A stretch of DNA of 64,000 nucleotides from Halobacterium hubeiense (GTDB lineage Archaea > Halobacteriota > Halobacteria > Halobacteriales > Halobacteriaceae). Below, one piece after another: positions 38,191 to 53,174 of the stretch. The stretch spans positions 1 through 64,000 of the forward strand of contig NZ_LN831303.1 in assembly GCF_001488575.1 (NCBI RefSeq), written 5' to 3'. The notes under the pieces were generated by a model. It did not search any database, was not told where the DNA came from, and saw only the letters and a list, made by a program, of their open reading frames with translations. The first letter of the stretch is position 1. Each line of letters begins with the position of its first letter. The position numbers were made by a program, and so were the translations under genes.

Positions 38191-38277
38191 CAATCGGGTC
38201 GTCGCAATCCCCGATATTAATAATTCGGATGTGGGAACGAGTGACGCGCCCGTCGGGTTCCCCACGTCGAACTGGTC

Positions 38278-38724: not shown

Positions 38725-40987
38725 ATGGACACAGACACCGACGCGCCGACGTATGAGCGCGCCGACGCGCCCACAGCGAAGCGAGTCGCGGACCTCCTCG
38801 ACCGCATGACCCTCGAAGAGAAGGCGGGGCAGGTCACGGGGACGTGGGCGGGCTACCTGCGCGAGCGCCACGACCTCGACGACGTGAAGCGCGCCATCGA
38901 CGACCATCACCTCGGGTTCGCCGCGCCGTTCGGCTGGGGCGGCGCGCTGGCGACCGACCCCGAAGCGGTCACCGAGGCGGTCAGCGAGCTACAGACGTAC
39001 GCGCGAGAGGAGACGCGACTCGGCATCCCGCTGTTGTTCAGCGTGGACGCCATCCACGGCAACGCGTACGTGTCGGGCGCGACCGTCTTCCCGAACGGAC
39101 TGGGCGCGGCCGCGACGTGGGACCCCGAGGGCGTGGAGGCCGCGGCGGAAGTCACCGCGAAAGAGGTGCGTGCGACGGGCGCGCACCAGAACTACGGGCC
39201 GACAGTCGACGTCGGCCGCGAGCCGCGCTGGGGACGGATCTTCGAGACGTTCGGCGAGAGTCCCCCACCTCGTCGGCGAGCTCGCGGCCGCGAAAGTCCG
39301 GGGCTATCAGGGCGACGGGCTCGCGGACCCCGACAGCGTCGTCGCGACGGCGAAGCACTTCCCCGCGTACAGCGAGCCCGAGCGCGGGGAGGACGCCTCC
39401 CCGGTGGACGTCTCCGAGTACAAGCTCCGGAACACGTTCCTCCCGCCGCTGGAGCGCGCGCTCGACGACGGCGTGGCGTCGGTGATGCCCTCGTACAACT
39501 CCATCGACGGCGAGCCCTCGCACGGCTCGACGGCGCTACTCGGGGACCTCCTGCGCGATGACCTCGGTTTCGAGGGCCACGTGGTCTCCGACTGGAACGG
39601 GATTCGCCACCTCCACGAGGACCACCGCACGGCCCGCGACCACGCCGACGGTGTCCGGCAAGCCCGAGAGGCTGGCGTGGACGTGGCGTCGGTCGGCCAC
39701 ACCCCGCACGCCGAGCGCGTCGTCGACCTCGTGGAGTCCGGCGACCTCGACGAGGCGACCCTCGACGAGAACGTCCGCCGCGTGCTCCGCCTGAAGTTCG
39801 AACTCGGGCTGTTCGACGAGAACCCGGAAGACGCCGCCGACGCCGAGACGGCCGTCGAGACGCTCGGCGCGCCCGACCACCGCGAGCAGGCGCTGGAGGG
39901 AGCTCGGGACAGCATGACGCTGCTGGAGAACGACGGCCTGCTCCCGCTGTCCGGCGACGAGGACGTGTTCGTCGGCGGGCCGAACGCCGACGACATCGTT
40001 CACCAGCTCGGCGGGTGGAGCGTCAGCAGCGACGACGACGGCTTGCCGGGTGCGACCGTCCGCGAGGCCGTCGAGGACGCGACGACCGGCGACGTGACGT
40101 ACGCGCAGGGCGCGACGCTCAACGAGACGCTGGACGTGGACGCGGCCGTCGAGCGCGCTGCCGACGCGGACGTCGCCGTCCTCGCGCTCGGTGAGGGGTG
40201 GTACCTCCACGAGTTCGGCCCGACCGAGAACACCGGCTCGGCGACCGGCGAGTGGCCGACTCGCGGCGACCTCGGGCTGGCGGACGCCCAGCAGGAACTC
40301 GTGCGACGCGTCCGCGAGACCGGGACGCCGGTCGTCGGCGTGCTGATTACGGGACGGCCGCTAGCGGTCGAGTGGCTGGCCGACACCGCCTCCGCGCTGC
40401 TGCTGGCGTACTTCCCCGGGACGGAAGGCGGCACGGCTGTCGCGGAGACGCTGTTCGGGGAGAACGACCCGAGCGGCCGGCTCCCCATCACGGTGCCGCG
40501 CTCGGAAGGCGACCTCCCCCAGCACCACGACTACCTCGCCCACCCGACGCCGATTGGCGACGACGAACACCCCAACTCCTACGACCCGTTCTACGAGTTC
40601 GGCCACGGGCTCAGCTACACCGACTTCGAGACCAGCGACCTGTCCGCGACGTTCGAGGGCGCCGAGGGTGCCGTCGAGGGTGGCGCAGCGGCCGGCACAG
40701 TCCGCGTCACCGTGGAGGTCGCCAACGTCGGAGACCGCGAGGGGACCGAAACCGTTCAGGTGTACGCCCGCCAGCGACACGCCTCCCGCGTCCGGCCGGT
40801 GCGCGAACTCGTCGGCTTCGACCGCGTGACGCTCGCTGCCGGCGAGCGCGAAACCGTCGAAATCGAGGTTCCTGTCGAACGGCTGGGCTTCTACAAGCCC
40901 CGTGAGGGCCACGTCACTGAATCGGGCGCGTACCGCATCGAAGTCGGCGACGACGCGACCTCCGTTGACCTCCCGGCGAGCGAGTGA
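38725..40987 (+). pseudogene. GH3 beta-glucosidase/xylosidase interrupted by a frameshift
   Basis: Nearly complete family 3 glycosidase (about 750 codons) in two frames. The first (from ATG 38725, MDTDTDAPTYERADAPTA) runs through SVDAIHGNAYVSGATVFPNG to WGRIFETFGESP. The second resumes PHLVGELAAAKVRGYQGDG and contains KHFPAYSEPERGED, the nucleophile Asp in GHVVSDWNG, a sandwich domain and a C-terminal FnIII-like domain. The switch maps to a run of five C at 39262-39266, where four would keep the frame. Box A CAATAATTAATAC is 26 nt before the start and the rest is intact, so it is either a recent inactivation or a sequencing error. It is a distant relative of the GH3 at 35860, not a tandem copy. 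Confidence 0.85.
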
Positions 40988-41614
40988 GCGCGCCGGGTAG
41001 TCGTCTCCGCCCGACCGACATCTCATTACACGTCTAGTATTGTAACGGAAGTCGGGCGGGGAGCGCGCCAGCGTATTCCACAGCGAGGCTTCGACGAAGC
41101 GGCTGGGACGTAGTTGTTCGCCAAAGTACCGTAGTCATTTACAGTAAATTCTTCTGAGGTATTTGGGCTGAAGGACAGTTTCGGTGGATACTGCGCTGAG
41201 CCGCGAGGTTGGTTCACGGGTAGTCGCGTGAGGACTCGAGACCACAGTTTCTCTCAATGCAGGACAGCACGGTCGCGACGCCACACAGAGCGAGCGCGGA
41301 TTCTAGTGGTATTCGAGGTTTTGACGGACGTTACTGGATTTCACGGAAAGTCGTAGCAGCGACGAGACGAAGTTCATCGTCGGATGTGTGGTGCCATCAA
41401 ACCGGGCCAGTCGCCGACCGCGGCGCTCCAGTGACGCGAACGCGCGCAGAATCCGTTCGCATAATCAAAGTATTCGCTATCGTATAGTATTACAGACGTA
41501 CCTAATTTTGTATGATTCCGGGGAGTAGCAAGTGAACCACGGCCAACGTGTCGTCTGCGCGAGAAAACATTAGATACAATAATTATGGATTCGGTGTGGC
41601 TAGACGTTCGTCCA
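40988..41614. other. 627-bp intergenic region with no assigned gene
   Basis: The composition is mixed and lower in GC than the flanking genes. Short open frames on both strands (for example minus 41026-41217 and plus 41257-41487) lack recognisable families and coding bias; the minus one might be debris of a lost gene. A box-A-like TTAGATACAAT at 41569-41580 serves the next gene. Confidence 0.5.
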
Positions 41615-43297
41615 ATGCCACCGACCCACAACCTCTCGGACTACGAGCAGGCCCGCGCGGAGTTCTCGTGGGACGACGTGTACGCGGAGGCCGACTGGGA
41701 CGCCCCAGCGGACCTGAACGTCGGCCACGAAGTCGTCGACCGGCACGCGACCGACCGCGAGAAGGTCGCGCTCTACCAGGTCGGCGCCGACGGCGACCTC
41801 ACCAGGCTCACGTTCTGGGAGCTGGCCGACCGGTCGAACCAGTTCGCGAACGTCCTCGACGACCTCGGCGTCGCCGCCGGCGAGCGCGTGGTCTCGTACA
41901 TGCCGCGCATCCCCGAGCACTACGTCGCGCTCGTCGGCACCCTCAAGCACGGCGCCGTCTGGGGGAGCGTCAACGAGCGCTACGGGCCCGACGGCATCGC
42001 GTACCGACTCGACGACTGCGACGCGCGCGTCGTCGTCACGACCACCGACAACCGCGACACCGTCGCCGCGGCGCTCGACGACGCACCCTCGGTCGAACAC
42101 GTCGTCACCGTCGACCGCGGGACGGGCGCGCCCAGCGGCGACGTGGTCTTCGACACCGCCGTCGACGACGCCAGCACCGACTACGAAACCGCCGCCACGG
42201 GCGGCGACGACGACGCGCTGCTCTACTACACGTCCGGGACGACCGGCCCCGCGAAGGGCGTCCTCCACGAGCACCGCTGGATTGCGGGCGTCGCGGCGAC
42301 CCAGCGGTACGCCGTCGACCTCCAGCCCGGCGACCTCTACTGGTCGACCGGCGACCTCGGCTGGCTGACCGGCGCCATCAACACGCTCGGCGCGTGGTTC
42401 TGGGGGGCGTCGCTGTTCACCTACGAGGGCGAGTTCGACCCCGAGACGTGGGCCGGCCTCCTCGACGACTACCCCATCACGGTGCTGTTCTCCGTCCCGA
42501 CCGCCTACCGGATGCTCCGCGAGCACGAGGGCGTCCTCGACGGCGTTGACCTCGACCTGCGGCACGCGCTGTCCATCGGCGAACCGCTCTCCGCGGGCGT
42601 CGTCGACTGGGGCGAGGACACGCTCGGCGTGACGATTCTGGACACGTACGGCCAGACCGAGACCGGCAACATGGTCATCAACAACTACCCGTCGATGGAA
42701 CTCCGCCCGGGCTCGATGGGCAAGCCGCTGCCCGGCATCGACGCCGCGGTCGTCGACCCCGAGACCGGTGAAGTTCTGCCGCCCGGAGAGACGGGCGAAA
42801 TCGCCCAGCGCGGCGACTACCCGTGTTTCTTCGCGGAATACTGGGAGGCCCCGGAGAAGACCGCGGCGTGTTTCGTCGACGGCCCGGACGGCGAGTGGTA
42901 CCTCTCCGGGGACCTCGCGCACCGGGACGAGGACGGCTACTTCTGGTTCGAGGGGCGTGCCGACGACGTCATCCTCTCCTCGGGGTACCGCATCGGGCCC
43001 TTCGAGGTCGAGAGCGCGCTCGGCGAACACGACGCCGTCGCCGAAGCCGCCGTCGTCCCGAAACCCCATCCCGAGCGCGGCAACGTCGTCAAGGCCTACG
43101 TCGTCCCCAGCGAGTCGGCCAGCCCGTCCGCCGACCTCAAATCGGACGTCAAAGCCCACGTCAAAGAGCGGCTGGCGGCCCACGAGTACCCCCGCGAAAT
43201 CGAGTTCGTCGAGGAGCTACCGAAGACCGTCACCGGGAAGATTCGCCGGACGGAACTCCAGGACCGCGCCGCCGACGAACCGGAGTCCGCCGAGTAA
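41615..43297 (+). CDS. AMP-forming acyl-CoA synthetase (acetyl-CoA synthetase family)
   Basis: 560 aa ANL-superfamily ligase making acyl-CoA from acid, ATP and CoA. Motifs: the P-loop-like YYTSGTTGPAKGVLHEH, YGQTETGN, the hinge and adenylate motif YLSGDLAHRDEDGYFWFEGR, and the C-terminal catalytic Lys in KTVTGKIRRTEL. The start ATG at 41615 (MPPTHNLSDYEQAR) sits about 40 nt after box A TTAGATACAAT; an ATG at 41585 is too close to it. It is shorter than bacterial Acs (about 650 aa) and of the haloarchaeal short acyl-CoA synthetase type. It lies 0.6 kb upstream of the lactonase operon, in the same direction, so a link to 4-hydroxybutyrate or another short acid is possible but unproved. Confidence 0.88.
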   Translation: MPPTHNLSDYEQARAEFSWDDVYAEADWDAPADLNVGHEVVDRHATDREKVALYQVGADGDLTRLTFWELADRSNQFANVLDDLGVAAGERVVSYMPRIPEHYVALVGTLKHGAVWGSVNERYGPDGIAYRLDDCDARVVVTTTDNRDTVAAALDDAPSVEHVVTVDRGTGAPSGDVVFDTAVDDASTDYETAATGGDDDALLYYTSGTTGPAKGVLHEHRWIAGVAATQRYAVDLQPGDLYWSTGDLGWLTGAINTLGAWFWGASLFTYEGEFDPETWAGLLDDYPITVLFSVPTAYRMLREHEGVLDGVDLDLRHALSIGEPLSAGVVDWGEDTLGVTILDTYGQTETGNMVINNYPSMELRPGSMGKPLPGIDAAVVDPETGEVLPPGETGEIAQRGDYPCFFAEYWEAPEKTAACFVDGPDGEWYLSGDLAHRDEDGYFWFEGRADDVILSSGYRIGPFEVESALGEHDAVAEAAVVPKPHPERGNVVKAYVVPSESASPSADLKSDVKAHVKERLAAHEYPREIEFVEELPKTVTGKIRRTELQDRAADEPESAE

Positions 43298-43325: not shown

Positions 43326-43715
43326 TCACGGCCGCTCTTCGAGGACGATGTTGCGCGCCTGCGAGATGACGCCGTGGGCGTCGTCCATCGCGTCGGCGTC
43401 GATGGCGACGGCGGCACCGACGCCGTCGCCGACGGCGAAGTTCATCTCGATGACGTGCTCGAAGCACGTAATCATGCATTGTAGGTCGCCGTGGTCCTTG
43501 GAGAAGGCGTGCTCGTACAGGGGCGCGTGCAGCGAGTCCAGTCGGGACTCGTCGATTGCCTTCCGGAGGCCGTCGTCGGAATACTGGGCGGCCACGTCGT
43601 CGCGAACGTATTCGACCTCGACGCTGTCGGTGTCGTACCGGATGACGCTGCGCAGTTCCCCGTCGGTCTGCTCCTCGAAGAACTCCCTGAGCCGGGAGGT
43701 GACACCGGCGGCCAT
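43326..43715 (-). CDS. Small haloarchaeal conserved protein, function unknown
   Basis: 129 aa, acidic, soluble. It begins MAAGVTSRLREFFEEQTDGE, with a mixed alpha/beta pattern; two Cys and two His lie in DLQCMITCFEHVIEMNFAV, not spaced as a zinc site. No catalytic motif. Proteins with a similar pattern are widespread in haloarchaea as single-gene units. Upstream (43767-43788) is a CTATGT-N10-ACATAG inverted repeat that may belong to its control region. It is transcribed away from the lactonase operon. Confidence 0.75.
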   Translation of the reverse strand: MAAGVTSRLREFFEEQTDGELRSVIRYDTDSVEVEYVRDDVAAQYSDDGLRKAIDESRLDSLHAPLYEHAFSKDHGDLQCMITCFEHVIEMNFAVGDGVGAAVAIDADAMDDAHGVISQARNIVLEERP

Positions 43716-43788: not shown

Positions 43789-43899
43789 TCTGTCGGGCGT
43801 GGGTCGCGCCCGAACGGAGCGATTAGCGCGGAGGGAAACGACCCCAGTTCTCTCGTGGAGCGCCTCCACAGCGCGGTGTCAGCGTTCGCCCGTACATTT

Positions 43900-43915
43900 A
43901 TAGTTAATTAACTAT
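43900..43915. promoter_or_regulatory. 16-bp perfect palindrome overlapping the lactonase-operon promoter
   Basis: ATAGTTAATTAACTAT is fully self-complementary. Box A (ACATTTATAGTT, 43894-43905) overlaps its left half and the lactonase ATG is at 43927. A protein bound here would block TBP/TFB, so a repressor operator is the simplest reading. Confidence 0.6.
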
Positions 43916-43926
43916 CATTATCGTAT

Positions 43927-44733
43927 ATGGTAGAAGCTACCATAGACGTGGTCCACCGCGGCGGACTGCAGTGCGACCTCAACTACCTGATTCAGGGGAA
44001 CACGCTCGGGAGCCACGACGAGCCCGACCCATCCACCGACTACGAGGAGATTCCGGTGTGGAACCTCGTCATCGACCACCCCGAAGCGACGATTCTGTGG
44101 GACACCGGCAACCACGAGGACGCCCTCGACGGCCACTGGCCGGAGGGCCTCAAGCAGGCGTTCTACCCCCACGACGTGCGCGACCACACGCTCGAAGGCG
44201 ACCTCGAAGACGCCGGCTACAGTCTCGACGACATCGACGCCGTCGTCCAGACCCACTTGCATCTGGACCACGCCGGCGGCCTCCACCACTTCGACGGCAC
44301 CGACGTCCCCGTCTACGTCCACGAGAGGGAACTCAAGTTCGCGTACTACTCCGAGAAAACCGACAAGGGAAGTGGCGCGTACATCCTCGAGGACTTCGAC
44401 CACGACCTGAACTGGCAGGTCGTCCACCAAGACCGCGAAACTCACTTCGAGGACATCGAGTTCATCCGGCTTCCCGGACACACGCCCGGGCTTATGGGGA
44501 CGATCGTTCACCTCGACGGCCACGGCACGCTGGTGTTCGCGGGCGACGAAATCTACCAGTCGGAGAACTACGAGGACGAAGTGCCGCTGGGCGCCGGCCT
44601 GCTCTGGGGGAATCAGGCGTGGTTCGAGAGCCTCCAGACGCTGAAAGAACTCGAACGCACCCACGACGCCGAAATCGTCTACGGCCACGACCCCGACCAG
44701 TTCGACGACATCCGCTCGGGGTGGTCCTCGTGA
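43927..44733 (+). CDS. MBL-fold lactonase (AttM/BlcC/AiiA-like), probable gamma-lactonase
   Basis: 268 aa metallo-beta-lactamase fold hydrolase of the N-acyl homoserine lactonase / gamma-butyrolactonase group. The dinuclear zinc motif is THLHLDHAGG; later ligands are His in RLPGHTPGLM, Asp in VFAGDEIYQ and His in IVYGHDPDQFD. The N-terminus (VEATIDVVHRGGLQCDLNYL) and the insertion after DTGNHED resemble AttM-type lactonases. First gene of a three-gene operon. Its TGA overlaps the GTG of the iron alcohol dehydrogenase. The likely reaction is gamma-butyrolactone to 4-hydroxybutyrate, judged from the two following enzymes. Acyl-homoserine-lactone hydrolysis is the main alternative. Confidence 0.83.
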   Translation: MVEATIDVVHRGGLQCDLNYLIQGNTLGSHDEPDPSTDYEEIPVWNLVIDHPEATILWDTGNHEDALDGHWPEGLKQAFYPHDVRDHTLEGDLEDAGYSLDDIDAVVQTHLHLDHAGGLHHFDGTDVPVYVHERELKFAYYSEKTDKGSGAYILEDFDHDLNWQVVHQDRETHFEDIEFIRLPGHTPGLMGTIVHLDGHGTLVFAGDEIYQSENYEDEVPLGAGLLWGNQAWFESLQTLKELERTHDAEIVYGHDPDQFDDIRSGWSS

Positions 44734-46043
44734 GCTACGACCGCTCGGTCTCCGCCAGCGACCGCGAGCTCGCACCGGAGACCATCTGGCACATCGACAT
44801 GCCGGAAATCAGATTCGGGCGGGACGCAACCGACGAGCTCGCCTTCCAGTTGCGCGACCTCGGCGTCGAAGGCGCAGCCACTGGACTCGTCATCACCGAC
44901 GACGGAGTCGCCGACGCCGGCCACGCCGACCGCGTCGTCGCTCACCTCGAAGCCGCCGGCCTCGACATCGACATCTACGCCGACTCGGAGCGCGAACCCT
45001 CCATCGGCGCCATCGAGGACTGCCTCTCGTTCGTCCGCGACCAGACCGACGACGGCTACGACTTCTACGTCGGGCTCGGCGGCGGGAGCTGCATGGACAC
45101 CGCGAAGGCCACTCGCGCGATCATCGCTAACGGCGGCAGCCCCCTCGACTACGTCGCCGAACCGACGGGCGACGGCCAGACGCTCACCGAATCCGGCCCG
45201 CCGCTGGTGCTGTTGCCAACCACGGCCGGCACCGGCGCCGAGATCTCCCCGGTCGCGATTCTCTCGGTCCCCGAGAAGGAGATCAAGGAAGCGATTTCGA
45301 GCAACCACGTCCGGGCCGACGCCGCCGTTCTGGACCCGACACTGACCACGACGCTCCCGCCGGACCTCACCGCGCGGACGGCGATGGACGCGCTCGGCCA
45401 CGCCATCGAGGGGTACACAACCCACGAGTACGACTCGCTGTTGCGCGCGAGCGACCCGGGCGAGCGCCCGGTGTACGCCGGGCGAACCCAGCTCACCGAG
45501 ATGTTCTCCGAGAAGGCGATCCGTCTCCTCTCGGGGAGCGTCCGCACCGCCGTCCACAACGGCGACGACCTCGACGCCCGCGAGGACATGCTGCTAGGGG
45601 CGCTGTTCGGCGCCATCTCCGGGCTCACCGCGGGCGCCAGCCTCTGTCACGCGATGGCGTACCCCGTCGGCAACAAGTATCACACGTTCCACGGCGAGAC
45701 CATCGCCGTCCTCACGCCCGCGAGCACCATCGACTACAATTCGGCCAGCGACCCCGCGCGGTTCGCCGAGGTCGCCGAAATCTTCGGCGTCGATACCACG
45801 GGACTGACGGACCGCGAGGCCGCCGACGCGCTCAAGCGGGCGTACATTCAACTCCAGCGGGATCTGGGCGTTCTTCCGAGCGGCCTCAGCGAACTCGCCG
45901 GCATCACCGAGGACGACGTCGACTGGCTCGCCCAGCAGACCGTCGACACGCAGGAACGCCTCCTGCGGTGCAACCCCCGGCCGGTGACCAGCGACGACGT
46001 CGCGGCCGTGTTCCGGGACGCGCTGCACAACTGGGAAGAATGA
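44730..46043 (+). CDS. Iron-type alcohol dehydrogenase, 4-hydroxybutyrate dehydrogenase / HOT-like
   Basis: 437 aa group III (iron) alcohol dehydrogenase. NAD-binding GLGGGSCMDTAKA at about 115-127, LLPTTAGTGAEISP, and metal His in ALGHAIEGYT and in SLCHAMAYP and HTFHGE. The extended segment YTTHEYDSLLRASDP followed by RPVYAGRTQLTEMFS and VRTAVHNGDDLDAR is like the hydroxyacid-oxoacid transhydrogenase (ADHFE1) branch, which oxidises 4-hydroxybutyrate to succinate semialdehyde. The GTG at 44730 overlaps the lactonase stop (GTGA), and the 3' end overlaps the aldehyde dehydrogenase ATG (ATGA). Product naming by context; 4-hydroxybutyrate is the best candidate. Confidence 0.88.
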   Translation: MSYDRSVSASDRELAPETIWHIDMPEIRFGRDATDELAFQLRDLGVEGAATGLVITDDGVADAGHADRVVAHLEAAGLDIDIYADSEREPSIGAIEDCLSFVRDQTDDGYDFYVGLGGGSCMDTAKATRAIIANGGSPLDYVAEPTGDGQTLTESGPPLVLLPTTAGTGAEISPVAILSVPEKEIKEAISSNHVRADAAVLDPTLTTTLPPDLTARTAMDALGHAIEGYTTHEYDSLLRASDPGERPVYAGRTQLTEMFSEKAIRLLSGSVRTAVHNGDDLDAREDMLLGALFGAISGLTAGASLCHAMAYPVGNKYHTFHGETIAVLTPASTIDYNSASDPARFAEVAEIFGVDTTGLTDREAADALKRAYIQLQRDLGVLPSGLSELAGITEDDVDWLAQQTVDTQERLLRCNPRPVTSDDVAAVFRDALHNWEE

Positions 46044-47425
46044 CCGACGCGACAGGACCGGACATGGACGCCGTCAATCCCGCGACGGGCGAACGCATCG
46101 CGACCTACGAGGCGGACTCACAGGCGGACGTGGAGGCGGCGCTGGCGCGCGCCGACGACGCGTTCGAGGCGTGGCGCGAGCGGCCGCTGCGCGAGCGCGA
46201 GGAACTGCTCGCGGTGGCCGGCGACGTGCTCCGCGAGAACGAACGCGAGTACGCACGGCTGATGACCGAGGAGATGGGGAAGCCGATTTCGCAGGCGGTC
46301 TCGGAGGTCGAGAAGTGCGCGTGGGTCTGCGACCACTACGCCGAGCATGCCAGCGCATACCTCCAGCCGGAGGGCCACCCGAGCCCGCCGGGTGCGGACG
46401 TGCAGACGGTGTACGAGCCGCTCGGCCCGGTGCTGGCGGTGATGCCGTGGAACTTCCCGTTCTGGCAGGTGTTCCGGTTCGCGGCGCCGTACCTCACCGC
46501 GGGCAACGTCGGCCTGCTCAAGCACGCCTCGAACGTCCCCGGCTGCGCGCGGGCCATCGCGGACGTGTTCGAGGAGGCGGGCTACCCCGACGGCGTGTTC
46601 CAGACGCTCCTCGTCGGTTCGGACGCCGTCGACGACGTGCTCGCCGACGACCGCGTGCGGGCGGCGACACTCACTGGCAGCGGGCCGGCGGGCCGCGCGG
46701 TCGCGTCGACGGCCGGCCAGGAACTGAAGAAGACAGTGCTGGAACTCGGCGGCAGCGACCCGTTCGTCGTCCTCGACGACGCCGACCTCGACGAGGCGGC
46801 CGAGACCGGGGCGTGGGCGCGCAACCTCAACGGCGGCCAGTCCTGCATCGCCGCGAAGCGCTTCGTCGTCCACGCGGACGTCTACGACGAGTTCGTCGAG
46901 CGGTTCGTCGACGAGGTGGATTCGCTGACCGTCGGCGACCCCACCGACGAGGAGACCGAGGTCGGCCCGCAGGCGAGCGCGGACCTGCTGGCGGACCTCC
47001 ACGAGCAAGTGCGGGCGTCCGTCGAGGCGGGCGCGACCGTCCTCACCGGCGGCGAGCCGATGGACCGCGAGGGCGCGTTCTACCCGCCGACGGTGCTCGC
47101 GGACGTCCCCGAGGGGTGTCCCGCCGACAGCGAGGAGCTGTTCGGCCCCGTCGCCGCCGTCTTCGAGGTCGACGACGAGGCCGAGGCAGTCGAGAAGGCC
47201 AACGACACCGCGTTCGGGCTGGGGGCGAGCGTCTGGACCGCGGACCGCGAGCGCGGCCGCCGCGTCGCCCGCGACATCGACGCCGGCTGCACGTACGTCA
47301 ACCAACTGGTGAAGTCCGACCCGCGCGTGCCGTTCGGCGGCGTCGGCGTCTCCGGGTACGGCCGCGAACTCTCCGAGCCCGGCATCAAGGAGTTCGTCAA
47401 CCGCAAGACCCTCTGGGTCGAATAA
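46040..47425 (+). CDS. Succinate-semialdehyde dehydrogenase family aldehyde dehydrogenase
   Basis: 461 aa NAD(P)-dependent aldehyde dehydrogenase of the GabD/SSADH group. Catalytic Asn in MPWNFPFWQ, Glu in VLELGGSDP, nucleophile Cys in NGGQSCIAAKRF; C-terminal GRELSEPGIKEFVNRKTLWV is typical of the SSADH subgroup. The ATG at 46040 (MTDATGPDMDAVNPATG) overlaps the upstream TGA. Third and last gene of the lactonase operon, it would oxidise succinate semialdehyde to succinate for the TCA cycle. A fragment resembling its 3' end recurs at 47914-47981. It is unlike the XacF-like enzyme, which has the motif GQSCTACS. Confidence 0.9.
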   Translation: MTDATGPDMDAVNPATGERIATYEADSQADVEAALARADDAFEAWRERPLREREELLAVAGDVLRENEREYARLMTEEMGKPISQAVSEVEKCAWVCDHYAEHASAYLQPEGHPSPPGADVQTVYEPLGPVLAVMPWNFPFWQVFRFAAPYLTAGNVGLLKHASNVPGCARAIADVFEEAGYPDGVFQTLLVGSDAVDDVLADDRVRAATLTGSGPAGRAVASTAGQELKKTVLELGGSDPFVVLDDADLDEAAETGAWARNLNGGQSCIAAKRFVVHADVYDEFVERFVDEVDSLTVGDPTDEETEVGPQASADLLADLHEQVRASVEAGATVLTGGEPMDREGAFYPPTVLADVPEGCPADSEELFGPVAAVFEVDDEAEAVEKANDTAFGLGASVWTADRERGRRVARDIDAGCTYVNQLVKSDPRVPFGGVGVSGYGRELSEPGIKEFVNRKTLWVE

Positions 47426-47835: not shown

Positions 47836-47913
47836 CCGGAGAAAGCGCGGTGGCTCCCGCCAATGTGTAGCTTCCTGCTGTTCCCACCGCAAACCACCGG
47901 CGTCAGTCATCTG

Positions 47914-47981
47914 CATCTCCGGGTACGACTGCGAAGTCTCCCGGCATCGACGAGTTCGTCAACCGCAAGACCCTCTGGGTG
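47914..47981 (+). pseudogene. 3'-end remnant of an aldehyde dehydrogenase gene
   Basis: The DNA reads CATCTCCGGGTACG, then a small deletion, then CCGGCATC followed by a near-identical copy of the last about 35 nt of the SSADH gene at 47380-47422. The peptide is PGIDEFVNRKTLWVEES versus PGIKEFVNRKTLWVE. The match is too long to be chance. It is the tail of a lost second copy, or a recombination footprint. Confidence 0.75.
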
Positions 47982-48123
47982 GAGGAGTCCGCGAGCGGGC
48001 GCGGTTTCGACGGACGGACCAGAAACCGTTTCTCCCGGCCCCGTCTAGGTCATCGTATCCTGACGGTTCGCGTCCGACCGCGTGGTTCGGGCGGCGGCGC
48101 GGCCGGCGACCACTCACTCCACT

Positions 48124-48636
48124 ATGCCACCCACTCGCGCCACAATCACGGAGTCCATCGAGGCCCACCCCGGCCTCCACTTCAACGAACTCGTTCGGCG
48201 ACTCGAACTCGCGCCGGGCCAACTCCAGTACCACATCCGGGAACTCCAATCGACGGAGGACGTGATTGCGGAGTCCGTCTACGGGAAAACACACTACTTC
48301 CCCCCGGAGTACGACGACTGGGAGCGGACCGCGCTGGCGCTGCTCCGCCGGGAGACCGCCGGGGAGATTGTCGCGTTGCTCCTGACAGAGGGGGAGGCGC
48401 CGCCAGCGGCCGTGGCGGACGACCTCGGCATCGCTCGCAGTACCCTGGAGTGGCACTTGGACCGCCTCGTCGACTGCGGACTGGTCGAGAAACAGCGCGA
48501 CGTCTCGAACCGCGTGACCCTGACCGTTCGGAACGCCGACCGGACGGTCGAGTTACTGCGCGAAGCGGACCCGACGCTCGGCGAACGGATGGTCGACAGG
48601 TTCACGCGGCTGGTCGACAACCTCCTCGACGGGTGA
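48124..48636 (+). CDS. Winged-helix transcriptional regulator with two HTH modules
   Basis: 170 aa. First wing at about 5-60 (HFNELVRRLELAPGQLQYHI, the recognition helix of an ArsR/MarR-like HTH), second at about 78-130 (VADDLGIARSTLEWHLDRLV). The C-terminal tail is Arg/Asp-rich. Tandem winged helices of this type are common in haloarchaeal regulators. It starts at the ATG 48124 and ends 6 bp before a small membrane protein gene, so the two are probably cotranscribed. The nosLDFY block begins 0.4 kb further on, making copper or nitrous-oxide-related control a possibility. Confidence 0.8.
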   Translation: MPPTRATITESIEAHPGLHFNELVRRLELAPGQLQYHIRELQSTEDVIAESVYGKTHYFPPEYDDWERTALALLRRETAGEIVALLLTEGEAPPAAVADDLGIARSTLEWHLDRLVDCGLVEKQRDVSNRVTLTVRNADRTVELLREADPTLGERMVDRFTRLVDNLLDG

Positions 48637-48945: not shown

Positions 48946-49053
48946 CTGTTCTGGTTCGTTCCTCGAACCGATTCGAGTATTGTACCAGTGCCACTATACT
49001 ATCTGCGGAGCCACGAGCAAACGACGCCGAGTCCCCCACGACGCCTCTCACTC

Positions 49054-49686
49054 ATGGCTCCACACTCATCTGACGAACGCCCCTCGACCCACGAATCCCA
49101 CGCACAGACACCAACTCCAGCGGGCGGGCTGCCGGTCACGCGACGGCAGTTCGTCGGCGGCGCTACCACCGCCGTCGCGGCCGGCCTCGCGGGCTGTCTC
49201 GGTGGCGGCGGCACGGACGACGCGCCGGCCCCGGTCACGATTCCCGACGGCGCCACCTGCGACGTCTGCGGCATGGCAATTACACAGCAACCCGGCCCGA
49301 CGGCCGAGATTTTCTACGCGAACGCACGCCCTAGCGACCACGAAAATCCCGCTCGCTTCGACAGCGTGTGGGAGGCGTTCCAGTTCGACTTCCGCCACGA
49401 CTGGACGCGGACGGCGTTCTACGTCACCGACTACTCGGCCGTCGACTACGACGTCCGGACCGACGGCGACCAGCAGCTGCTCTCGACACACTACGAGCGG
49501 GCAGCGTTCGTCGACGCGACCGCCGCCACCTACGTCGTCGGCTCGGCGGTCGTCGGCGCGATGGGCAAAGACCTCGTCGGGTTCGCCGAGCGCGCGGACG
49601 CCGAACGGTTCCGGGACGAGTACGGCGGCGACCTCGCCACGTTCGACGACGTGACCCCGGACCTCGTCTCGTCGCTCGGCGCGTAG
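49054..49686 (+). CDS. nosL: NosL-like copper-binding lipoprotein
   Basis: 210 aa lipoprotein. Tat signal with RR at 30-31 (VTRRQFVGGATTAVAAG) and lipobox Cys48. The mature domain has the NosL signature CDVCGM (Cys69, Cys72) and VVGSAVVGAMGKDLVGFAER. NosL delivers Cu(I) to nitrous oxide reductase in denitrifiers. The ATG at 49054 is chosen because a TATA-like element lies at 48989-49000; a longer frame from 48988 would start inside it. It is followed by nosD after one base. No nosZ is present in this window, so the copper may serve another enzyme or a nosZ elsewhere. Confidence 0.85.
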   Translation: MAPHSSDERPSTHESHAQTPTPAGGLPVTRRQFVGGATTAVAAGLAGCLGGGGTDDAPAPVTIPDGATCDVCGMAITQQPGPTAEIFYANARPSDHENPARFDSVWEAFQFDFRHDWTRTAFYVTDYSAVDYDVRTDGDQQLLSTHYERAAFVDATAATYVVGSAVVGAMGKDLVGFAERADAERFRDEYGGDLATFDDVTPDLVSSLGA

Positions 49687-49687
49687 C

Positions 49688-51610
49688 ATGCTCGGGCGAA
49701 GCCTCCCGCTGGCGCTGGTGGTCGCGCTCGTCCTACTGAGCTACTCCCTCGTCGTACCGGTCGGCGACGACGCCGTCGAGCCCGCCCGGTTCGAGAACAC
49801 GTTCGACCTCGGACTGACCGACGAGACCGTCCGCGAGGTCGAGCGACGCGGCCTGTCGATTCCCCGCGTGCAGGTCTACTACTCGAGCTACGAGTACGTC
49901 GTCGGCTTCGACACCATCGAGTCGTTCCGCCTCGAACAGCAACGAGCGGGCCACCAGCGGCAGTTCGGGCAGCCGGTCGCCATCTTCGTCTCCGACTACG
50001 CCGGCACGAACGCCTCTCTCACCGAGAACGGCTCCCTGACGGCGGCCAACCATGTCGGCCTCGTCGACGCCGAGGACGCGTTCGTCGTCGTCGGCAGCGA
50101 CGCCCGCCTCCCGAGCGGCCCGGTCGCGGTCCCGTTCGGCGAGCGGAGCGCCGCAGCGGCGTTCGCCGACGACTACGGCGGCGACGTCGTCCCGTGGTCG
50201 GGAGTCGAGGACGCCGTCACGCCCGCGCAACCGCTCACCCGTCAGAACTTCCGGGCGGCCGCGGACAACCGGTCCGCGTGGGCGGACGCGGCGGTCGCTA
50301 CCGCCCGGACGCTCCGCGACCGACCGACGTCGGTCACCGTCGGCGAAGACGCCCCGTCGCTCGCCGCCGCTGTCGACGCCGCGCCGCCGAACACGACCGT
50401 TCGCGTCCCGCCCGGAACGTATCGGACTGACGGCCTCACCGTGAACAAGTCGCTGACCATCTCCGGCGCCGGCGAAGCCACCCGGCTCCGGGGCGACGGA
50501 AACGGAACCGTCGTGCACGTCACCGCGCCGCGAGTCGCGCTCGCGGACCTCCGCATCGACGGCGTCGGCGACGTCGGGAGTCGGCGCAGCATGTTGAACG
50601 CCTCCCGGCTCGAAACCGCCGGCTGGTCGGAGAACATCGAACTCGCGTACGGCCGCGGCGACGCCGCCGTGCGCCTCGTCGATGCCACCGAATCACTGCT
50701 CACCGGCCTCCACGTCGACACGCCATCCTCGGGCATCGTCTCGCTGAACAGCACCCGCTCGGTCGTTCGCGACACGGAAGTGAACGTGACGAACGACGCC
50801 GACGACGGCTTCATGGGGCTGGTCGCGATGCACGGCCCGCTGGTCGTCGAAGACAGCCAGTTCGCGGGCGGCCGCGACGGCGTCTACACGCATCGCGCCG
50901 ACGGCGTCGTCGTCCGCGGCAACACGTTCCGGGACAGCCGATTCGGCGTCCACGAGATGTACACCTCCCGTTCGCTCGTCAGCAACAACACCGTCCGCGA
51001 CACGAAGACCGGCGTCATCATCATGACGCGACCCACCGGAACCATCGTCGTCGACAACGACGTACGCGCGTCGCAGGTCGGGCTCTCAACCGCCGGTTCG
51101 TACGCCTACTACGCCGGCAACGTCGTGACCGACAACGCCCGCGGCATCGACGTCCTCGGCTCCCAGTCCCTCGTTGAGCGCAACACGATTACTGGCAACA
51201 CCGTCGGGATTCGTAGCGGCCCCGCGCTGCCGACGAATCTCGTCACCGCGAACGACATTGTCGGCAACGACCGCGCTGTCACCGCCGACCTCGGCCCGCT
51301 CCGCGTGTGGACCGTCAACGGTAGCGGGAACTACTGGGGGCCGATGCCCGGAAGTGACGCCGACGCAGACGGCTACTACGAGCGGTCGTTCCGCCCGAGC
51401 GGCGCCGTCGACGGGCACCTCCACGACGCGCCCGGCGCGTGGACGCTCGCCCGCTCACCGGCGGTTGCACTGACTCGGAACGTCCAGGACACCGTGCCGG
51501 GGTTGCGTCCCGCGGGCGTCGTCGACACCGCGCCGCGAGTCACCCCGGTGCGGCCCGAGACGCTGGCCGCTACCCGTGGAGCGACCAACGCGACGGAGGT
51601 GACGTCGTGA
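49688..51610 (+). CDS. nosD: NosD-type parallel beta-helix protein with NosL-like N-terminal domain
   Basis: 640 aa, exported through an N-terminal membrane signal (about residues 4-22). Residues about 80-190 contain AIFVSDYAGTNAS, AFVVVGSDARLPSGPVAVPF and AAFADDYGGDVVPW, which read like a NosL-type fold but without the CxxCGM cysteines. The C-terminal about 400 residues are a beta-helix of NosD/CASH type with repeats such as SLLTGLHVDTPSSGIVSLNS and GVIIMTRPTGTIVVDNDV. NosD acts with NosF and NosY in copper-centre maturation. The TGA at 51608-51610 overlaps the nosF GTG. Confidence 0.83.
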   Translation: MLGRSLPLALVVALVLLSYSLVVPVGDDAVEPARFENTFDLGLTDETVREVERRGLSIPRVQVYYSSYEYVVGFDTIESFRLEQQRAGHQRQFGQPVAIFVSDYAGTNASLTENGSLTAANHVGLVDAEDAFVVVGSDARLPSGPVAVPFGERSAAAAFADDYGGDVVPWSGVEDAVTPAQPLTRQNFRAAADNRSAWADAAVATARTLRDRPTSVTVGEDAPSLAAAVDAAPPNTTVRVPPGTYRTDGLTVNKSLTISGAGEATRLRGDGNGTVVHVTAPRVALADLRIDGVGDVGSRRSMLNASRLETAGWSENIELAYGRGDAAVRLVDATESLLTGLHVDTPSSGIVSLNSTRSVVRDTEVNVTNDADDGFMGLVAMHGPLVVEDSQFAGGRDGVYTHRADGVVVRGNTFRDSRFGVHEMYTSRSLVSNNTVRDTKTGVIIMTRPTGTIVVDNDVRASQVGLSTAGSYAYYAGNVVTDNARGIDVLGSQSLVERNTITGNTVGIRSGPALPTNLVTANDIVGNDRAVTADLGPLRVWTVNGSGNYWGPMPGSDADADGYYERSFRPSGAVDGHLHDAPGAWTLARSPAVALTRNVQDTVPGLRPAGVVDTAPRVTPVRPETLAATRGATNATEVTS

Positions 51611-52347
51611 CCGACAATGCCAACGACGGACGGTCACTAGCGCTCAGGGACGCATCGCTGGCGTTCGGCGACGTGACTGTCCTCGACGGCGCGTCCGTCG
51701 ACCTCCGGACGGGTGCGTTCACGGCGGTAGTCGGCCCGAACGGGTCGGGGAAGACGACGCTGCTCGAACTGCTGGCGGGACTGCGACCGCTCGACGCGGG
51801 GACGGTCACCCGGCCGGCCGCTTCCGGCCGGCTCGTCGCGTACCTCCCGCAGACACCCGGCTTTCGGTCGGGGTTTTCCGCCTGCGAGACGCTGGAGTTC
51901 TACGCGGACCTCGTCGACGGTGACACTGACCCCGACAGCCTGCTCGCCGAGGTCGGCTTGGCGGATGCCGCCCAGCGCGGCGTTGACGAACTGTCCGGGG
52001 GGATGATCCGCCTCTTGGGCATCGCGGTGGCGCTGGTCGGCGACCCGCCCGTCGTCGTCCTCGACGAGCCGACCAGCGGTCTCGACCCGGACGTCGCCGA
52101 CCACATCTTCGACGTCGTCGAGGGGCTCGCCGGCGACGGCCGACTCGTCGTCACCGCGAGCCACGACTTGGCCGCCATCGAGGCGCGCGCGGATCGCGCG
52201 CTGTTCCTCTCGAACGGCGAGTTCGTCCTCGACGGCGCGCCCGAGCAGATTCTGGAGACGACCGGCGCGGAGTCGCTTCGAGCGGCGTTCGCCGCGACCG
52301 CTCGCGCAGAAGCCGGCGCTGTCGCTCGTCCCGGAGGTGGGCGGTGA
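51607..52347 (+). CDS. nosF: ABC transporter ATP-binding protein NosF
   Basis: 246 aa ATPase. Walker A GPNGSGKTT, signature ELSGGMIRLLG, Walker B PPVVVLDEPTSGLDP, and switch His in VVTASHDLAAI. The GTG at 51607 is chosen because it overlaps the nosD stop and keeps MTDNANDGRSLALRD; the longer upstream frame is nosD read out of frame. It drives the NosDFY complex with the NosY membrane protein. The next gene overlaps by one to four bases. Confidence 0.85.
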   Translation: MTDNANDGRSLALRDASLAFGDVTVLDGASVDLRTGAFTAVVGPNGSGKTTLLELLAGLRPLDAGTVTRPAASGRLVAYLPQTPGFRSGFSACETLEFYADLVDGDTDPDSLLAEVGLADAAQRGVDELSGGMIRLLGIAVALVGDPPVVVLDEPTSGLDPDVADHIFDVVEGLAGDGRLVVTASHDLAAIEARADRALFLSNGEFVLDGAPEQILETTGAESLRAAFAATARAEAGAVARPGGGR

Positions 52348-53174
52348 TGCGGCGACGCGACCGCGTGGCCGCCATCGTCGAGCGCGAACTCTGGACGCTG
52401 CTTCGGAGCCGCGTCGCTCTCGCGCTCGCCATCGGATTCTTCGGCATCATCGTCGGACTCGGTGGCGTTTCGATGGGTGCGCCCGGCGGCTACGTGTCGC
52501 TGACCTACGACCTCCTCCTCCCGGTGGAGGTGTTAGTTCCGACGCTGGCGTTCGCGTACGCCTACCAGTCCGTCCGCGGCGACGACGAACGCGGTGAGCT
52601 GGCGGTCATCCGGACGTACGACGTGTCGCGACTGGAGTACGTCGCGGGCGTCTTCGTCGGGCGCGCCGCAGTCCTGCTCGTCGTCGTGCTCACGAGCCTC
52701 GGCGCGGCCGGCGTCGTCGCCAGCGTCGGGGCGAACCAACCCGTGGCGTTCTTCGCGACGCACAGCGCGGGCGACACCCCGCTCGTGTACGCGCGGTTCG
52801 CGGTGTTCGCGGCGCTCTACGCGCTCGTCGCCGCCGCGCTCGCGGTCGCCGTCTCGGCGGCGACGCGCACGAGCCGCCAGGCGCTCGCCGCCAGCGTCGG
52901 CGTGCTACTCGCCGTCGCGGTCGCACTCGACCTCGCCGTCGTCACGCTCGTCTCGGCGAACGTCGTCGATGCCGCGTCTATCGCGGTCTTCACGGGTCTT
53001 AGCCCGGCGAGCGCGTTCCGTGGGCTCGTCCTCGAAGTTGCAATCCAGCCCGCGCTGGCAGTCAGCCCGTCCGTCGCCACCGCGTCGCCGCTCGTCAGCG
53101 GCGTCGGACTGCTCGGGTGGCTGGCTGCGAGTGTGACCGTCGCCACCGTCGCAATCTGGCCTGAGTCAGCCTGA
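52347..53174 (+). CDS. nosY: ABC-2 type permease NosY
   Basis: About 275 aa membrane protein, six helices, ABC-2 permease family. It starts MRRRDRVAAIVERELWTLLR, with ELWTLLRSRVALALAIGFFG the usual beginning of NosY-like permeases. The GTG at 52344 is an alternative start. It partners NosF. With NosD the three form the NosDFY export/maturation system. The gene ends at 53174; downstream are unrelated small membrane genes. Absence of nosZ, nosR or nosX in the window leaves the target enzyme undefined. Confidence 0.85.
   Translation: MRRRDRVAAIVERELWTLLRSRVALALAIGFFGIIVGLGGVSMGAPGGYVSLTYDLLLPVEVLVPTLAFAYAYQSVRGDDERGELAVIRTYDVSRLEYVAGVFVGRAAVLLVVVLTSLGAAGVVASVGANQPVAFFATHSAGDTPLVYARFAVFAALYALVAAALAVAVSAATRTSRQALAASVGVLLAVAVALDLAVVTLVSANVVDAASIAVFTGLSPASAFRGLVLEVAIQPALAVSPSVATASPLVSGVGLLGWLAASVTVATVAIWPESA

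What the first reader, a model, noticed from the sequence alone, without database searches (positions are those of the whole stretch)
43927..47425. Haloarchaeal counterpart of the blcABC/attMLK gamma-butyrolactone operon
Three overlapping genes encode an AttM/BlcC-like MBL lactonase, an iron alcohol dehydrogenase of the HOT/4-hydroxybutyrate branch, and an SSADH-type aldehyde dehydrogenase. This is the same enzyme set, in sequential order, as Agrobacterium BlcC-BlcB-BlcA: gamma-butyrolactone to 4-hydroxybutyrate to succinate semialdehyde to succinate. GTGA and ATGA overlaps show tight coupling. I do not know of such an operon described in archaea. It might use exogenous gamma-butyrolactone, 4-hydroxybutyrate or a polymer monomer, or act on lactone signals.
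Basis: partly seen in the sequence, partly recalled or inferred. Interest (0 to 1): 0.82.

Follow-up and report, generated by a model that had tools for sequence, protein, structure and literature searches.

The report
Haloarchaeal butyrolactone-to-succinate gene cluster
A salt-loving archaeon carries three overlapping genes that look able to open a small ring molecule (gamma-butyrolactone) and oxidise it stepwise to succinate; the first two genes are a widespread, undescribed haloarchaeal pair and the third is a recent addition, so the system resembles a known bacterial one but is built from different relatives.

Summary
In detail: three co-directional genes with GTGA and ATGA overlaps encode an AHL-lactonase-fold lactonase, an iron alcohol dehydrogenase and an SSADH-type aldehyde dehydrogenase. 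The reading "haloarchaeal BlcABC" holds as an analogy of chemistry, not of descent. The lactonase scores far below the AttM/BlcC model and is nearest AaL/GcL; the ADH carries one of the two inserts that define hydroxyacid-oxoacid transhydrogenase (HOT), and BlcB carries neither; gene order is the mirror image and no blcR is present. In 391 Halobacteria genomes the conserved unit is only lactonase-ADH: both genes in 64 genomes (30 genera), adjacent in all 64. The ALDH is third in only 3 of them (window and two Halolamina-type genomes). Independent support for lactone -> 4-hydroxybutyrate -> succinate semialdehyde comes from bacteria: one Deinococcus pairs a true HOT with a BlcC orthologue (71%), and tetrahydrofuran and dioxane plasmids pair HOT with a D-2-hydroxyglutarate-dehydrogenase-like gene. 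ALDH residues that bind succinate semialdehyde and NADP are conserved. Best reading (0.6): catabolism of gamma-butyrolactone/4-hydroxybutyrate. Substrates and cofactor are untested; AHL or other gamma-lactones remain possible. No paper on it was found in the open-access library.

The parts
43927..44733 (+). lactonase (metallo-beta-lactamase fold, AHL-lactonase group, AaL/GcL-like); all di-metal ligands H110 H112 D114 H115 H185 D207 H254 and catalytic-type Tyr210 present
44730..46043 (+). iron-containing alcohol dehydrogenase, HOT-like (first HOT insert present, second absent); predicted to oxidise 4-hydroxybutyrate to succinate semialdehyde; metal ligands D220 H224 H307 H321
46040..47425 (+). 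aldehyde dehydrogenase of the SSADH (PRK09406 / cyanobacterial SSADH) group; third gene only here and in Halolamina-type genomes
44730..44733 (+). GTGA overlap (ADH start GTG / lactonase stop TGA)
46040..46043 (+). ATGA overlap (ALDH start ATG / ADH stop TGA)
43897..43926 (+). possible promoter: TATA-like TTTATAG about 30 bases before the ATG, overlapping a perfect 16-base palindrome ATAGTTAATTAACTAT (43900-43915); the palindrome is not conserved in relatives
   Evidence: read; promoter function not tested
47910..47987 (+). relic: second copy of the 3' end of an ALDH gene, 84% identical to the end of the window's own ALDH; scar of an older ALDH or of the recombination that brought the cluster in

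Best explanation
The cluster is a catabolic operon for gamma-butyrolactone / 4-hydroxybutyrate. The lactonase opens the gamma-lactone to 4-hydroxybutyrate; the HOT-like iron ADH oxidises 4-hydroxybutyrate to succinate semialdehyde, either with NAD(P)+ or, if it works as animal HOT does, by handing the hydride to 2-oxoglutarate; the ALDH oxidises succinate semialdehyde to succinate for the TCA cycle, probably with NADP+. The lactonase-ADH pair is the ancestral haloarchaeal unit and normally relies on an SSADH encoded elsewhere; in the window's lineage and in Halolamina the SSADH gene has joined the operon. Shown: gene layout, families, catalytic residues, conservation of the pair. Inferred: the substrates, the direction, the cofactor and co-transcription.
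For: Overlapping genes. Pair adjacent in 64/64 genomes that hold both, 30 genera. Lactonase: all metal ligands and Tyr conserved in 48/48 near relatives; nearest solved relative by sequence 6cgy = AaL (fold tied with GcL), which hydrolyses gamma-butyrolactone at kcat/KM 1.4e5 as well as AHLs (PMC6062542). ADH: carries the first HOT insert (18 residues), absent in BlcB, FucO and DhaT; HOT is the animal enzyme that turns 4-hydroxybutyrate into succinate semialdehyde (PMC5125639). Independent lactonase-HOT pairing: Deinococcus wulumuqiensis HOT + AttM lactonase adjacent, the lactonase 71% identical to BlcC and over the AttM cut-off. HOT homologue near the tetrahydrofuran-monooxygenase-type genes of Rhodococcus ruber YYL, followed by a D-2-hydroxyglutarate-dehydrogenase-like gene; same pair plus SSADH in Mycobacterium dioxanotrophicus. 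ALDH keeps the residues that bind the SSA carboxyl and NADP phosphate in cyanobacterial SSADH (Trp135, Arg139, Ser419, Lys154, Ser157). 56 of 64 pair genomes hold an SSADH of this type against 246/391 overall (not corrected for kinship).
Against: No substrate is shown. The lactonase's hydrophobic pocket positions are broadly kept (read by me from the alignment), so AHLs or longer gamma-lactones are not excluded. The second HOT insert is missing and the HOT + haloarchaeal grouping has weak support (63/92). The ALDH is third in only 3 genomes. No GBL/4HB transporter or blcR-like regulator recurs beside the pair. The source of GBL/4HB in brine is unknown.
Confidence: 0.6

Rival explanations
1. 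Quorum quenching or use of N-acyl-homoserine lactones: the lactonase opens AHL rings (from bacteria or archaea) and the ADH acts on the acyl-homoserine or on an unrelated alcohol.
For: Nearest families are AHL lactonases (AhlS model 157 bits; GcL, AaL, AhlX, AiiB, AiiA as fold neighbours); hydrophobic pocket positions broadly retained. AHL-like signals were reported for Natronococcus occultus (PMC4187201), a species that carries the pair.
Against: All AHL model scores are far below their cut-offs. AHL hydrolysis gives no free 4-hydroxy acid for a HOT-like ADH, so the strict pairing with the ADH is unexplained; AaL, an AHL lactonase of this group, also takes gamma-butyrolactone (PMC6062542).
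Confidence: 0.15
2. Catabolism of a substituted gamma-lactone or hydroxy acid (for example gamma-valerolactone or longer 4-hydroxy fatty acids), with the ADH oxidising the opened hydroxy acid.
For: A second, related lactonase family in haloarchaea (50-63% identity) often sits near acyl-CoA synthetases and acyl-CoA dehydrogenases, and acyl-CoA synthetase genes abut the ADH in some pair genomes (L009, L130).
Against: These CoA genes are not constant neighbours of the pair; HOT-type enzymes act on the terminal hydroxyl of 4-hydroxybutyrate; the added third gene is an SSADH with conserved SSA-binding residues.
Confidence: 0.17
3. Salvage of 4-hydroxybutyrate from the organism's own polyhydroxyalkanoate.
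For: Many haloarchaea make polyhydroxyalkanoates and 4HB can be a monomer when precursors are fed (literature list).
Against: The class III PHA synthase is absent from the window's genome and from the two other genomes with the full triad, and its presence is not associated with the pair: 39/64 pair genomes against 222/391 overall, Fisher p = 0.49.
Confidence: 0.03
4. A true member of the blcABC operon family transferred from bacteria.
For: Same three enzyme classes and implied reaction sequence.
Against: 28.9, 31.6 and 36.5% identity to BlcC, BlcB and BlcA; AttM model not met; BlcB lacks the HOT insert; BlcA is GabD type while this ALDH is PRK09406 type; mirror-image order and no blcR. Holding BlcB with the haloarchaeal ADH clade costs 16 log units, p-AU 0.055, so it is disfavoured, not formally rejected.
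Confidence: 0.03

Closest known systems
blcABC (attKLM) operon of Agrobacterium fabrum C58, pAtC58 (L083)
   Same: SSADH-type ALDH, Fe-ADH and AHL-fold lactonase in one operon; implied GBL -> 4HB -> SSA -> succinate
   Different: Gene order mirrored (ALDH-ADH-lactonase), divergent IclR-type blcR; all three proteins from other subfamilies; BlcB lacks the HOT insert
HOT (ADHFE1) subfamily cd08190 and bacterial HOT genes (R. ruber YYL, M. dioxanotrophicus, Deinococcus)
   Same: First HOT insert at the same place, metal ligands, about 34-35% identity to the bacterial HOTs; a lactonase neighbour in Deinococcus wulumuqiensis
   Different: Second 13-residue HOT insert missing; forms its own haloarchaeal clade; no D-2-hydroxyglutarate dehydrogenase beside it
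AaL (6cgy) and GcL quorum-quenching lactonases
   Same: Fold (Z about 32, 2.5-2.7 A over 253-257 residues), metal ligands, Tyr, pocket type
   Different: About 30% identity; haloarchaeal; in an operon with an Fe-ADH
Cyanobacterial / mycobacterial SSADH (3vz3, PRK09406)
   Same: Catalytic Cys and Glu, SSA-binding Trp/Arg/Ser, NADP-binding Lys/Ser
   Different: 604 bits, below the equivalog cut-off of 730; encoded in an operon with lactonase and ADH

Membership tests
blcABC operon | Lactonase of the AttM/BlcC equivalog | tested here: not met
   105.7 bits against cut-off 390; the Deinococcus BlcC orthologue scores 461.6
blcABC operon | ALDH, Fe-ADH and lactonase genes adjacent and co-directional | tested here: met
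   order is mirrored relative to C58
blcABC operon | ADH of the BlcB type | tested here: not met
   31.6% identity; insert present here, absent in BlcB
blcABC operon | Divergent IclR-family repressor BlcR | tested here: not met
   Neither flanking gene is an IclR regulator: the minus-strand gene 43326-43715 has no Pfam match and the nearest HTH gene (48082-48636, HVO_0163 type) lies 656 bases downstream
blcABC operon | Converts GBL to succinate in vivo | not testable with these tools
   needs enzyme assays and knockouts
HOT subfamily (cd08190) | 19-residue insert between helices alpha5 and alpha6 | tested here: met
   18 residues at the homologous place; definition from PMC5125639
HOT subfamily (cd08190) | 13-residue insert between helices alpha8 and alpha9 | tested here: not met
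   0 residues in all 12 haloarchaeal ADH1 sequences; 13 in bacterial HOTs
HOT subfamily (cd08190) | Groups with animal and bacterial HOT in a tree | tested here: inconclusive
HOT subfamily (cd08190) | NAD(P)-independent transfer from 4HB to 2-oxoglutarate | not testable with these tools
   biochemical
AHL-lactonase group of metallo-beta-lactamases | HxHxDH...H...D...H metal site and the conserved Tyr | tested here: met
   H110 H112 D114 H115 H185 D207 Y210 H254, in 48/48 near relatives; fold match
SSADH (PRK09406 / NF006915) | Score above equivalog cut-off | tested here: not met
   604 against 730 bits, yet the best-scoring model
SSADH (PRK09406 / NF006915) | Catalytic Cys/Glu plus SSA- and NADP-binding residues | tested here: met

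The most novel reading that the evidence does not exclude
Haloarchaea possess a widespread two-gene lactonase-transhydrogenase module in which the HOT-like enzyme oxidises 4-hydroxybutyrate by passing the hydride to 2-oxoglutarate rather than to free NAD(P)+: a prokaryotic HOT with a defined pathway, assembled independently of the Deinococcus lactonase-HOT pair and of blcABC.
Probability: 0.27. Interest if true: 0.7.

Novelty: new variant of a known kind. Interest (0 to 1): 0.5.

Why it matters
The activity of HOT proteins outside animals is stated to be unknown (PMC5125639, 2016). The strict lactonase pairing in haloarchaea, the independent pairing in a Deinococcus and the THF/dioxane plasmid contexts give a concrete, testable function for prokaryotic HOT-type enzymes. 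It would also establish a gamma-butyrolactone/4-hydroxybutyrate route in haloarchaea, and it cautions that many haloarchaeal genes annotated as 'N-acyl homoserine lactonase' may be catabolic rather than quorum-quenching.

Tried and rejected
A conserved operator: the perfect palindrome at 43900-43915 is not found upstream of relatives. Conserved transporters or regulators beside the pair: neighbours are mostly lineage-specific housekeeping genes such as ribosomal proteins, serA or thrC (those names are my reading of the sequences). A short-chain fatty-acid transporter (TIGR00366) beside the pair in Natronococcus does not recur. NCBIfam 4-hydroxybutyrate dehydrogenase (Cupriavidus type): 172 bits against cut-off 500, not met. 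PHA-monomer salvage: no association with PHA synthase. An all-against-all BLAST of every ORF in the loci timed out and was replaced by a filtered gene set. Literature searches for a haloarchaeal GBL/4HB or lactonase-HOT operon found none in the open-access library; subscription papers were not searchable.
Full report
WHAT IS THERE. Three + strand genes lie head to tail: lactonase 43927-44733, iron alcohol dehydrogenase (ADH) 44730-46043 and aldehyde dehydrogenase (ALDH) 46040-47425, joined by GTGA and ATGA overlaps. Upstream on the same strand, beyond a minus-strand gene of no known family (43326-43715), is an acyl-CoA synthetase (41585-43297). Downstream are 656 bases to a HVO_0163-type HTH gene. 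The genome is a haloarchaeon, 3.13 Mb in 4 contigs.

THE LACTONASE. Best curated model is AhlS (157 bits, cut-off 475), then AiiA (111) and AttM (106, cut-off 390); none is met. By sequence the nearest solved proteins are AaL (6cgy) and GcL. The AlphaFold model (pLDDT 90) matches GcL and AaL at Z about 32 with AhlX, AiiB and AiiA close behind, so the fold does not separate them. All metal ligands (H110, H112, D114, H115, H185, D207, H254) and Tyr210 are conserved in 48 of 48 near relatives. AaL hydrolyses AHLs and also gamma-butyrolactone, kcat/KM 1.4e5 per M per s (PMC6062542). So the enzyme is very likely a lactonase, and GBL is plausible but not proven.

THE ADH. It is a normal Fe-ADH with the four metal ligands (AlphaFold pLDDT 85.6, Z about 52 to Fe-ADHs). 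HOT proteins are defined in PMC5125639 by two inserts, of 19 and 13 residues. The window ADH and its haloarchaeal orthologues carry the first (18 residues) and lack the second. Bacterial HOTs from M. dioxanotrophicus, R. ruber and Deinococcus carry both. BlcB, FucO, DhaT and the own-genome paralogue carry neither. With the insert columns left out of the tree, the insert still needs one change only. HOT plus the two haloarchaeal groups lie on one side of a branch, but with weak support (63/92). Holding BlcB with the haloarchaeal clade is disfavoured, not formally rejected (p-AU 0.055). I call the ADH 'HOT-like', not HOT.

THE ALDH. Best model is PRK09406 SSADH (604 bits, cut-off 730) and best structures are the cyanobacterial SSADHs. 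Catalytic Cys and Glu are present, and so are the residues shown to hold the SSA carboxyl (Trp135, Arg139, Ser419) and the NADP phosphate (Lys154, Ser157) in those enzymes. BlcA belongs to a different, GabD-type model.

HOW CONSERVED IS IT. In 80 haloarchaeal loci fetched with the lactonase, those with the nearest orthologues have the ADH directly downstream. In 391 Halobacteria genomes the orthologous lactonase occurs in 68, the orthologous ADH in 77, both in 64, and in all 64 they are adjacent, same strand, lactonase first, with gaps of a few bases or overlaps. By the genus labels these are 30 genera in 7 families (my count). Flanking genes differ between lineages, so the pair has been kept together while its surroundings changed. 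The ALDH is the third gene only in the window and in two genomes of one other genus (G073, G240; the named locus L003 is Halolamina salifodinae). Pair genomes hold an SSADH of this type somewhere more often than others do (56/64 against 246/391), although kinship is not corrected for.

ORIGIN OF THE THREE-GENE FORM. The cluster's nearest relatives are Halolamina (85.7-86.8% over 3.5 kb, similarity starting at the lactonase and ending at the ALDH stop), not members of the window's own genus: none of the 12 other genomes of that genus has the ADH, and their lactonase hits are distant. This suggests transfer as a block. A 78-base second copy of an ALDH 3' end at 47910-47987 (84% to the window's ALDH) looks like the scar of an older ALDH gene or of the recombination. 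In one congener (G126) an ALDH of this type and an orthologue of the window's acyl-CoA synthetase are neighbours, which hints that the cluster landed at a resident ALDH locus. This step is inference.

INDEPENDENT EVIDENCE FOR THE PATHWAY. Deinococcus wulumuqiensis encodes a two-insert HOT directly followed by a lactonase that is 71% identical to BlcC and above the AttM cut-off. Its lactonase and its HOT both belong to other subfamilies than the haloarchaeal pair, so lactonase-HOT pairing seems to have arisen at least twice. The other two Deinococcus plasmids checked have HOT without a lactonase, so it is not general there. On the plasmid of the tetrahydrofuran degrader R. ruber YYL a HOT gene lies near the monooxygenase-type genes and precedes a gene whose best model is D-2-hydroxyglutarate dehydrogenase YdiJ (below cut-off). 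M. dioxanotrophicus has HOT, the same YdiJ-like gene and an SSADH above the PRK09406 cut-off. That set reads as 4HB + 2-oxoglutarate -> SSA + D-2-hydroxyglutarate with recycling of 2-oxoglutarate. The window's genome has a distant YdiJ-like homologue elsewhere (31%), so such recycling is possible but unlinked.

MECHANISM. Most likely: GBL -> 4HB (lactonase), 4HB -> SSA (HOT-like ADH), SSA -> succinate (ALDH). Shown: layout, families, residues, conservation of the pair. Inferred: substrates, direction, hydride acceptor, co-transcription.

RIVALS. AHL use or quenching fits the lactonase but not the ADH pairing. A substituted gamma-lactone is open; a second haloarchaeal lactonase family near acyl-CoA synthetases and acyl-CoA dehydrogenases shows that related lactonases may serve other pathways. 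PHA salvage is disfavoured: no class III synthase in the three triad genomes and no association with the pair. Descent from blcABC is not supported.

NOVELTY. Public annotation already names the genes 'N-acyl homoserine lactonase family protein' and 'hydroxyacid-oxoacid transhydrogenase', but four searches of the open-access literature found no description of the pair or triad. I rate it a new variant of a known kind of catabolic operon, interesting mainly because it makes the unknown role of prokaryotic HOT-like enzymes testable.

Noticed in passing
38725-40987 (+): A second glycoside hydrolase family 3 gene next to the intact one at 35860-38265 (-) is split between two frames near 39262-39266 (FETFGES ends one frame, HLVGEL begins the next): a frameshift or a sequencing error.
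   Followed up: partly
48988-53174 (+): nos-type accessory genes just downstream: NosL domain protein, NosD with an extra NosL-like domain fused at its N-terminus, ABC ATPase and ABC-2 permease.
   Followed up: no
47910-47987 (+): Duplicate 3' end of an ALDH gene in the intergenic region after the cluster.
   Followed up: yes
L049-L082 (for example L057:6001-6804): A second haloarchaeal lactonase family (50-63% identity) often lies near acyl-CoA synthetase and acyl-CoA dehydrogenase genes instead of the HOT-like ADH; two such loci are in Actinarchaeum halophilum (L052, L063).
   Followed up: partly
G000:C1:1306457-1311396: In the window's genome a YdiJ-like FAD/Fe-S protein gene faces an aldehyde dehydrogenase gene; possible hydroxyacid oxidation pair.
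   Followed up: no
L122:3770-6763 and similar loci: A second HOT-like Fe-ADH group (40-46% identity to the window's) in about two dozen Halobacteria genomes, without the lactonase beside it in the six loci looked at; in L122 it directly follows an acyl-CoA synthetase.
   Followed up: partly
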